Positions 11,820-23,294 of a stretch of 23,571 nucleotides of DNA are shown one piece after another; position 1 is the first letter of the stretch, and the number at the start of each line of letters is the position of its first letter. Location: IMG/VR virus record IMGVR_UViG_3300034356_001753, positions 1 through 23,571 of that record. The stretch is one strand, 5' to 3'. A program made the translations under genes and the position numbers. The DNA is from a virus. The notes beneath the pieces are model-generated. The model was not told where the DNA came from. It saw nothing but the letters and a program-made list of their open reading frames with translations, and did not search any database.

Positions 11820-11847
11820 ATTATACAAATTTATTTTGTATCGTCAA
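11820..11847 (-). promoter_or_regulatory. Internal early promoter with overlapping palindrome
   Basis: On the minus strand TTGACG (11847-11842) is 16 bases from TATAAT (11825-11820), close to sigma70 consensus. An inverted repeat ATACAAA-N5-TTTGTAT (11823-11841) overlaps the -10 and spacer and could be an operator. Downstream comes the repeated leader CAACAACAGGAG and the start of the 136-aa gene. The promoter sits in the 3' end of the 59-aa gene. Confidence 0.6.
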
Positions 11848-21913: not shown

Positions 21914-21961
21914 GCAAAAATCTGTTGTATAGTAGAGTCCTCATCAACAGGAGAAACCATG
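21914..21961 (+). promoter_or_regulatory. Third repeated early promoter (exported-protein gene)
   Basis: GCAAAA, 8 bases, TATAGT (21928-21933) with TGTTG before the -10, then AGAGTCCTCATCAACAGGAG, leading to the ATG at 21959. It is a variant of the cassettes at 14654-14700 and 16477-16524. The opposing tail-fibre start is at 21843, leaving a 115-base intergenic region with no clear minus-strand promoter. Confidence 0.6.
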
Positions 21962-22324
21962 AAAACCTTAGCCTTCATTCTTGCCTTTTTTGCCTCTTTT
22001 GCTGCTCATGCTGAGTGGTTTGAACTGACCACATCAGGCGATAACATGACCACCTATTCTTACAAAATGGGTAGTTTAAAAAAGTCAAAAACAGACGCTC
22101 AAATCATCATCAGGGCCGAACACAACAACGGAGATAATCCAGACTTTCGCATCATCCGTATGACTGAGACAGACTGCCAAAACGAGTTTGGCGTTGTGCG
22201 CTTTTTTGACACATCAAACACTTTGCTGTTTTCCCACGCATACGTCAGGAACGGAGGCACTGTCGCTCAGTATCTTGGCGATTTTGTCTGTGAGTTGCGT
22301 AAAGACAAAAAAGGCATGATTTAA
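21959..22324 (+). CDS. Exported protein of unknown function (121 aa)
   Basis: A type I signal peptide (KTLAFILAFFASFAAHA) with cleavage predicted after A18 (AHA/EW). The mature 103 residues are beta-rich (WFELTTSGDNMTTYSYKMGSL, split) and have two cysteines (TDCQNEF, FVCELRK) that could bond. The layout resembles small periplasmic adhesin-E-like domain proteins, but this is not certain. It is isolated between divergent operons with its own early-type promoter, as a moron or accessory gene would be. Confidence 0.65.
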   Translation: MKTLAFILAFFASFAAHAEWFELTTSGDNMTTYSYKMGSLKKSKTDAQIIIRAEHNNGDNPDFRIIRMTETDCQNEFGVVRFFDTSNTLLFSHAYVRNGGTVAQYLGDFVCELRKDKKGMI

Positions 22325-22329
22325 GAGGC

Positions 22330-22357
22330 TTGACAGTCCTCGGGTTTTGTGCATAAT
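22330..22357 (+). promoter_or_regulatory. Strong sigma70-like promoter in gene-free stretch
   Basis: TTGACA (22330-22335), 16 bases, CATAAT (22352-22357). This is the best -35 match in the window. Transcription would begin near 22364, at the base of the first strong stem of the following RNA region. It is unlike the TGTTG-type promoters. Confidence 0.65.
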
Positions 22358-22363
22358 GTGGCT

Positions 22364-22760
22364 TGTCGATGCTGCCACATTGATGAACAACCAGGCCCCT
22401 TCGGTTCTGGCTCTCTGGGTTAAATCCCGAACGTGGCAGCGTGAGAGCAGGAACCCAAGGGGTTTGTGCTTTCTGGGGCTGAAACCGAAGTTTGTTCAGC
22501 ATAAAAAGCCACTTAGAAGGCTACCCAAAACCCCGACTGGTTTGAATGTGGGCGGGCCTAGCGGCATCAACTACGCATCAAACGAGAAGCGGTATAGGTG
22601 GGAAAGGGTCTGCAACACCGCGCAGATGGTTGGCGAAGATAGCGACCATGACCCGAACGGCTGTCGAGTGGCTATGTCCGCACTGGGTATTGCTTAAAGG
22701 CTTTTCTTCTTCACTGAGGAAAGGCTGAGTGACGCCGAACCGCTTGGGTTTTATAGATAG
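22364..22760 (+). ncRNA. Candidate structured noncoding RNA
   Basis: Bases 22325-22778 hold no convincing gene. Several stems appear along the predicted transcript: GCTGCCAC/GTGGCAGC (22371-22378, 22433-22440), CCAG/CTGG with a UUCG-containing loop (near 22391-22410), GGG/CCC around TTAAAT, GCTGAA/TTCAGC (22478-22483, 22495-22500), AGCC/GGCT (22507-22522), TCTGC/GCAGA (22609-22625), ATAGC/GCTAT enclosing GAC/GTC (22640s-22670s), and CACT/AGTG (near 22712-22731). It is headed by its own promoter and followed by an HNH endonuclease gene. No known RNA family was recognised. Confidence 0.4.
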
Positions 22761-22778
22761 TAGATAAAGGGGTAAATC

Positions 22779-23294
22779 ATGGAAATCACGCAAGACAAAT
22801 TAAAAGAGGCTTTGCACTACGATGCCGAAACTGGTGTTGTAACTTGGAGACAGGATCGCAAGTCAAATAAAGTCAAAGGTGAAATTGCCGGTTATTTATC
22901 TCCTTTTGATGGATATCGAAGAATACGCATCAACAACAATTTATATTTAGCGCATCGACTTATATGGGTCTATGTTATGGGCACATGGCCTAGTGAGCAC
23001 ATAGATCATGTTGATGGTGCTCGTGATAACAACAAATTTTCTAACTTGCGTCAGGCAACATCTAAACAAAATTGCGAGAACATTTGTATTGCAAAAAACA
23101 ACACATCTGGCTATCGCGGTGTTTATTTTGATAAATCTTGCAAAAAATGGAAAGCGGCTGTTCGTCACTACAAGCAACGATTCCATCTTGGCTATTTTGA
23201 AACTGCTGAAGAAGCAGGAAAAGCAGCCGCCGCCAAACGTGCAGAACTCTTTACCCACGACACGGGTCGCGATCAAGTGAATACTTTTGCCTGA
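22779..23294 (+). CDS. HNH homing endonuclease with AP2 domain
   Basis: Free-standing endonuclease of the HNH_3/AP2 type, a selfish element that cuts DNA and spreads by repair. The HNH core (about 58-100) has LAHRLIWVY, HIDHVDGARDNN with H77 and N84/N85, and FSNLRQATSKQN. The AP2 DNA-binding domain (about 107-155) has SGYRGVYFDKS and HLGYFETAEEAGKAAAAKRA. AAAGGGG is 6 bases before the ATG. It is more A+T-rich than neighbouring genes, consistent with separate origin. It is a free-standing gene here; no intron around it was demonstrated. Confidence 0.9.
   Translation: MEITQDKLKEALHYDAETGVVTWRQDRKSNKVKGEIAGYLSPFDGYRRIRINNNLYLAHRLIWVYVMGTWPSEHIDHVDGARDNNKFSNLRQATSKQNCENICIAKNNTSGYRGVYFDKSCKKWKAAVRHYKQRFHLGYFETAEEAGKAAAAKRAELFTHDTGRDQVNTFA

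What the first reader, a model, noticed from the sequence alone, without database searches (positions are those of the whole stretch)
22325..22778. Promoter-headed, stem-rich gene-free stretch beside a homing endonuclease
About 450 bases without a credible gene start with the best promoter of the window and contain at least seven stems. It does not match tRNA, tmRNA, group I intron or RNase P patterns by eye. It could be an undescribed phage RNA or an element mobilised with the HNH gene.
Basis: partly seen in the sequence, partly recalled or inferred. Interest (0 to 1): 0.6.

Follow-up and report, generated by a model that had tools for sequence, protein, structure and literature searches.

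The report
Phage RNA matching its own tail
The gene-free stretch is a structured RNA made by phages of Betaproteobacteria (its core is the Rfam family 'Betaproteobacteria-1', function unknown), and comparison of about 150 relatives shows a guide-like loop whose fast-changing sequence copies the DNA just past the RNA's own end, which suggests that the RNA docks on that DNA, perhaps to start replication.

Summary
Window 22540-22669 is a confident match to Rfam RF02932, Betaproteobacteria-1 RNA (68.1 bits, cut-off 49.4), so the core is a described family of unknown function. 151 core-like matches in phage contigs and betaproteobacterial genomes show much more. (1) The core holds three pseudoknots with strong covariation; I know of no description of them and could not read the family's presumed source paper. 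(2) In many phages a sigma-70-like promoter and a pseudoknotted, terminator-like 5' hairpin precede it. (3) A variable word in hairpin loop A recurs, same sense, just 3' of the last hairpin (B). A and B change together: own-pair score 7.66, best of 5000 permutations 5.96; phages with identical cores carry different but matched A/B pairs. Mismatches are skewed (A=G, B=A), as if A pairs with the complement of B. (4) DNA after B is AT-rich and C-poor, and the RNA often follows phage primase/helicase genes. Best guess (0.35): loop A docks on the template strand at B and seeds an RNA:DNA hybrid, like ColE1 RNA II at its origin. GC skew gave no support. The HNH gene is incidental. New: the A/B signature and the anatomy; not the core family.

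The parts
22330..22357 (+). sigma-70-like promoter TTGACA-16-CATAAT
   Evidence: 11/12 consensus; sigma-70-like promoters lie at the same place before the 5' module in many relatives
22358..22475 (+). 5' module: leader, long hairpin followed by a U-rich tract (intrinsic-terminator-like), leader paired with the hairpin's internal loop (22371-22378 GCTGCCAC with 22433-22440 GTGGCAGC)
   Evidence: fold z -3.84, 0 of 200 shuffles; same architecture with covarying leader/loop pairing in about 30 loci; no Rfam match
22540..22669 (+). Betaproteobacteria-1 RNA core (RF02932), all 120 model positions
   Evidence: 68.1 bits, E 7.6e-11, gathering 49.4
22570..22598 (+). pseudoknot PKc: 22570-22573 with 22595-22598 (3 of 4 pairs in the window)
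   Evidence: 95% paired over 68 relatives, 4 of 4 pairs change on both sides
22589..22621 (+). helix P2: GCGGT 22589-22593 with ACCGC 22617-22621
   Evidence: 5/5 pairs here; 90% paired, 5 of 5 pairs change on both sides
22606..22654 (+). pseudoknot PKa: GGGTC 22606-22610 (P2 loop) with GACCC 22650-22654 (P3 loop)
   Evidence: 5/5 here; 97% paired, 5 of 5 pairs change on both sides
22626..22649 (+). pseudoknot PKb: ATGGT 22626-22630 with ACCAT 22645-22649
   Evidence: 5/5 here; 85% paired, 5 of 5 pairs change on both sides
22638..22665 (+). helix P3: 22638-22643 with 22660-22665
   Evidence: 98.5% paired; one pair shows four types (CG, UA, AU, GC), four pairs never vary
22678..22688 (+). loop A, guide-like: CCGC-AC-TGGGT
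   Evidence: A/B repeat over 111 distinct relatives, z 19 against permutations
22699..22725 (+). hairpin P5 between A and B
   Evidence: predicted fold; the equivalent hairpin is seen by eye in relatives
22740..22749 (+). B: CCGC-T-TGGGT, same-sense copy of A at the 3' end of the RNA
22746..22778 (+). C-poor, AT-rich tail after B
   Evidence: sequence; general in viral relatives
22779..23294 (+). HNH_3 + AP2 homing endonuclease, free-standing neighbour, not part of the RNA system
   Evidence: PF13392, PF00847, phrog_99; not next to the RNA in relatives

Best explanation
Shown: the stretch encodes a structured phage RNA of the Betaproteobacteria-1 family (about 390 nt here, from the promoter to B). 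It has a 5' pseudoknotted terminator-like module, a core of three pseudoknots, a hairpin loop A, a hairpin P5, and a 3' segment B that repeats A in the same sense. Inferred: the core is a scaffold that presents loop A. As or after B is transcribed, loop A pairs with the template DNA strand at B, using two short blocks separated by a mismatched spacer, and so anchors the RNA on its own gene as an RNA:DNA hybrid (R-loop) that can spread into the C-poor, AT-rich, often repetitive DNA behind B. The likeliest use is to open and prime a replication origin, as ColE1 RNA II does. The 5' hairpin would act as an attenuator that sets how often the full RNA is made. Fast joint change of A and B would keep related phages from cross-reacting.
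For: Family match. Covariation: 93.2% of cells paired against 73.1% shuffled and 33-45% slid, 316 two-sided changes against 74. A/B: own score 7.66, best of 5000 permutations 5.96, 111 distinct loci. In pairs with near-identical cores but different A, own B fits better in 65, equal in 24, worse in 3; L006, L008 and L030 share an identical core but carry three different matched A/B pairs. No excess of reverse complements of the shared word in cis: 11 seen, about 20 expected. Mismatches lean to A=G/B=A, 59 against 4 the other way, and 30 against 4 without a constant column: the direction expected if A pairs by wobble with the exact complement of B. After B in viral loci: 57% AT against 45% (mean percentile 0.91), repeats z 1.45 against 0.38, C 12-15% over 20-50 nt. 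Helicase and Toprim primase genes directly upstream in 41-49 loci, and in Acidovorax phage AP1. ColE1 precedent (PMC5043065).
Against: No GC-skew switch at the RNA. The purine-rich tail could be an ordinary leader before a gene. Some Paraburkholderia/Caballeronia copies lie among ordinary chromosomal genes, not replication genes. The A and B spacers do not match each other, so a plain hybrid would be interrupted. Part of the G/A skew may be base composition. One lineage (L007, L019, L025, L035, L065) has the core but no clear A/B repeat. No expression, R-loop or replication data exist here. That a loop of RNA II pairs with template DNA is from my own memory of the ColE1 literature, not from the review read.
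Confidence: 0.35

Rival explanations
1. Trans-acting small RNA with two copies of one seed (A and B) that pairs with the same partner RNA or binds the same protein; A and B evolve together because the partner does.
For: A sits in a predicted hairpin loop and B in a tail behind the last hairpin; many copies have their own promoter-like box and chromosomal copies keep the word AGGGGCAT in both places; five viral loci have a terminator about 150 nt after the core.
Against: B is in cis at a narrow distance 3' of A; the A=G/B=A skew is not predicted; no complementary partner was found near the locus; whole genomes were not searched for one.
Confidence: 0.2
2. Guide RNA for an RNA-guided recombinase or nuclease acting at B, in the manner of IS110 bridge RNAs.
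For: A scaffold RNA with a programmable-looking loop whose two blocks match adjoining DNA; the same kind of RNA/DNA covariation defined bridge RNAs (PMC11208160).
Against: No IS110 transposase domain in 20 records with the RNA; no shared effector gene among neighbours; both blocks match one strand, whereas bridge RNA guides pair with opposite strands.
Confidence: 0.1
3. Cis-acting regulator of transcription or antitermination, such as HK022 put RNA, for the genes behind it.
For: It lies between gene blocks in same-strand operons and, in many phages, behind a terminator-like hairpin.
Against: The terminator-like hairpin is upstream of the core, so the core cannot act on it; downstream genes vary widely; it does not explain A/B identity.
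Confidence: 0.15
4. Element mobilised together with the neighbouring HNH gene.
For: The two are adjacent in the window, about 30 bases apart.
Against: Other relatives have no adjacent relative of this HNH gene.
Confidence: 0.02
5. A protein-coding gene in the 22347-22697 frame.
For: The frame is open for 116 codons.
Against: Stops in the same frame in all 9 relatives examined; no family match; compensatory RNA changes.
Confidence: 0.01

Closest known systems
Rfam RF02932, Betaproteobacteria-1 RNA
   Same: The core 22540-22669 matches the whole model above the curated cut-off; so do the 12 relatives scanned.
   Different: The model covers 120 positions and no pseudoknots; the RNA here has three, a 5' module, and the A-P5-B part. 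The window's branch scores lower (68 bits against up to 110 in relatives) and has its own A/B spacer (AC / T).
ColE1 RNA II (replication preprimer)
   Same: A promoter-driven structured RNA that stays on its own template DNA downstream; a similar idea of how it works.
   Different: No sequence match, no antisense RNA I seen, origin activity not shown; ColE1 uses no initiator of its own and lacks a phage primase/helicase setting.
IS110 bridge RNA
   Same: A structured RNA with a fast-changing loop whose two blocks covary with nearby DNA.
   Different: No recombinase; both blocks match one strand; one loop only; not at the end of a transposon.
HK022 put RNA
   Same: A phage cis-encoded structured RNA behind a promoter (own knowledge).
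   Different: No terminator read-through role fits the order of parts; A/B repeat not known in put (own knowledge).

Membership tests
RF02932 Betaproteobacteria-1 RNA | covariance-model score at or above the gathering score (49.4) | tested here: met
   68.1 bits, full length 1-120
RF02932 Betaproteobacteria-1 RNA | consensus helices of the model present | tested here: met
   helices pair in the window; P2 and P3 covary over 68 relatives
RF02932 Betaproteobacteria-1 RNA | description in its source publication | not testable with these tools
   the paper I believe to be the source is not held; no held paper uses the name
ColE1-like RNA-primed origin | persistent RNA:DNA hybrid at the origin | not testable with these tools
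   needs R-loop mapping
ColE1-like RNA-primed origin | origin signature in the genome (GC-skew switch) | tested here: not met
   no difference across the RNA in 27-29 loci
ColE1-like RNA-primed origin | antisense inhibitor RNA I | not tested
   no expression data, opposite strand not analysed
IS110 bridge RNA system | IS110 recombinase encoded with the RNA | tested here: not met
   PF01548 in 0 of 20 records, several of them fragments
IS110 bridge RNA system | loop guides pair with opposite strands of the DNA | tested here: not met
   both blocks are same-sense
HK022 put antitermination RNA | read-through of downstream terminators | not testable with these tools
   needs transcription assays
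group I intron, RNase P, tRNA, tmRNA | Rfam or ARAGORN match | tested here: not met

The most novel reading that the evidence does not exclude
The RNA is a self-addressing RNA: a pseudoknotted scaffold carries a rapidly evolving guide loop that base-pairs with the DNA just behind its own gene, a previously unrecognised way for phages to mark and open their replication origin (or another site) with RNA.
Probability: 0.3. Interest if true: 0.88.

Novelty: new variant of a known kind. Interest (0 to 1): 0.62.

Why it matters
A curated RNA family of unknown function gains an anatomy and a testable hypothesis. The matched, fast-changing A/B pair is the kind of signal that revealed other RNAs that read DNA, yet no recombinase or nuclease is seen with it. 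If A does pair with DNA at B, phages of Betaproteobacteria use a guide RNA on themselves, which would be a new way to control phage replication and possibly a compact programmable RNA-DNA docking system.

Tried and rejected
Protein-coding reading (broken frames, no families). HNH-linked element. Close DNA relatives of the window stretch in phage and plasmid records: none; conserved core patterns had to be used instead. A complementary partner of A/B in cis: none in excess. Antitermination by the core: wrong order of parts. Origin signature by GC skew: not seen. IS110 partner: absent. A regular downstream terminator: only 5 of 86 viral loci. Literature searches for the family name and its setting found nothing, and the presumed source paper is not held. 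Among the neighbour clusters scanned in Pfam and PHROGs no constant protein partner besides replication genes emerged.

Full report
What is there. The stretch has a good sigma-70-like promoter (22330-22357, 11 of 12), tied with one other site in the window, and no credible gene. ORFs in it match no Pfam or PHROG family, and the 22347-22697 frame carries stops in all nine relatives examined. Rfam finds one match in the whole window: RF02932, Betaproteobacteria-1 RNA, at 22540-22669, 68.1 bits, cut-off 49.4.

Relatives. The stretch has no close DNA match among annotated phages or plasmids. A pattern from the conserved core found 109 viral contigs and 55 genome contigs; 151 matches have the family's full core signature. 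Similarity to the window reaches furthest in L002, L136 and L107, from about 22530 to 22750. Among bacterial genomes the family is rare: 3 of 250 Burkholderiales genomes above cut-off, including the genome used as centre, and no further genome in 229 of the class. The window itself is a 23.6-kb phage fragment with terminase, portal, tail fibre, Sak annealing protein and helicase genes. One characterised phage with the RNA is Acidovorax phage AP1, where it follows helicase and primase genes.

Structure. Inspection of relatives suggested pairings that cross the family's helices. On an alignment of 68 divergent relatives, P2, P3 and three pseudoknots (PKa, PKb, PKc) pair in 93.2% of cells against 73.1% in shuffles and 33-45% when slid; 20 of 25 pairs change on both sides, with 316 two-sided cells against 74. 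A swap control gives the same result helix by helix. In the window PKa and PKb pair 5 of 5, P2 5 of 5, P3 6 of 6, PKc 3 of 4. The sequences are related and these numbers are not corrected for phylogeny, but several columns show all four Watson-Crick types.

5' module. Between the promoter and the core the window has a long hairpin followed by a U-rich tract, and the leader GCTGCCAC is complementary to GTGGCAGC in the hairpin's internal loop. The part folds 3.8 sd better than shuffles. Similar modules, many with a sigma-70-like promoter, occur in about 30 loci; the longest leader/loop complement averages 7.3 nt against 5.8 when loops are swapped (about four of the 34 listed look like false positives). 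Rfam has no match for it. I read it as an attenuator or a separate small RNA. A second class of phages lacks it and has the core directly behind a Toprim primase gene.

The A/B repeat. Downstream of P3, a hairpin loop holds a variable segment A, and the same word recurs just 3' of hairpin P5 (B). In the window A is CCGC-AC-TGGGT (22678-22688) and B is CCGC-T-TGGGT (22740-22749). Words of at least 7 nt are shared in 79 loci, with 49 different words in that set, though a minority are chance matches outside A and B. Own-pair scores average 7.66 over 111 distinct loci; the highest of 5000 permutations is 5.96. Among pairs with cores at least 93% identical but different A, own B fits better in 65, equal in 24, worse in 3. 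L006, L008 and L030 share an identical core but have three different, matched pairs. The spacer between the two blocks differs between A and B but in matched types, for example GGCUCC with YCACC, or GA with UC; this typing is by eye.

What A pairs with. There is no excess of the reverse complement in cis. Mismatches within the repeats are skewed: A=G with B=A 59 times, the reverse 4 times; without a constant column 30 against 4. This is the direction expected if A pairs, with wobble, to the exact complement of B, such as the template strand there. The skew may partly reflect base composition.

Surroundings of B. In viral loci the 90 nt after B are AT-rich (57% against 45%, mean percentile 0.91) and often repetitive (z 1.45 against 0.38; 19 of 69 above 2), and C is 12-15% at 10-50 nt. 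In the window 22746-22774 has no C. Primase, helicase, resolvase and DnaB-type genes are common neighbours. GC skew, however, shows no switch at the RNA.

Mechanism. I infer that loop A docks on the template strand at B and seeds an RNA:DNA hybrid, most likely to open or prime replication, as in ColE1 (review PMC5043065). The pairing of a ColE1 RNA II loop with template DNA is from my own knowledge. Steps shown: the RNA's structure and the A/B covariation. Steps inferred: DNA pairing, R-loop, origin use, attenuation by the 5' module. Rivals are a trans-acting RNA with two seeds, a guide for an unseen enzyme, and a cis regulator. Bridge RNAs give the closest analogy in the kind of evidence (PMC11208160), but no IS110 recombinase is present in 20 records and both blocks match the same strand.

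Novelty. The family is known; the pseudoknots, 5' module and A/B repeat appear new, with the caveat that the family's presumed source paper could not be read. That the RNA is a genuine member of the family I hold at about 0.97, that A and B are functionally linked at about 0.9, and the DNA-docking mechanism at 0.35.

Noticed in passing
L112-L165 (Paraburkholderia, Caballeronia and relatives): Chromosomal copies of the RNA with their own promoter-like box lie among ordinary genes (LigD, MFS, catalase), 1-4 per genome, nearly all with the same word AGGGGCAT in A and B; L118 and L149 are cut off at loop A, one L124 copy and L164 lack the 5' half.
   Followed up: partly
L007, L019, L025, L035, L065: A lineage keeps the core but has a short P4 loop (TAACA) and no clear A/B repeat.
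   Followed up: no
L021:1642-1760: Core identical to L033, but the A hairpin and P5 are deleted so that the core runs straight into B.
   Followed up: no
L011, L075, L101, about +602 to +608 from TGGCGAAG: A third copy of the A/B word AAAAGCAAA at nearly the same distance downstream in three related loci.
   Followed up: no
L004, L016, L036, L038, L041 directly after B: Short AT-rich direct repeats with 8-11 base period (for example TATTAGA, TACAGGTAA), like iterons.
   Followed up: partly
21959-22324: Small ORF just upstream of the RNA, no family match; its first residues look like a signal peptide.
   Followed up: no
11820-11847: Second strong promoter-like site of the window (minus strand, TTGACG-16-TATAAT).
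   Followed up: no
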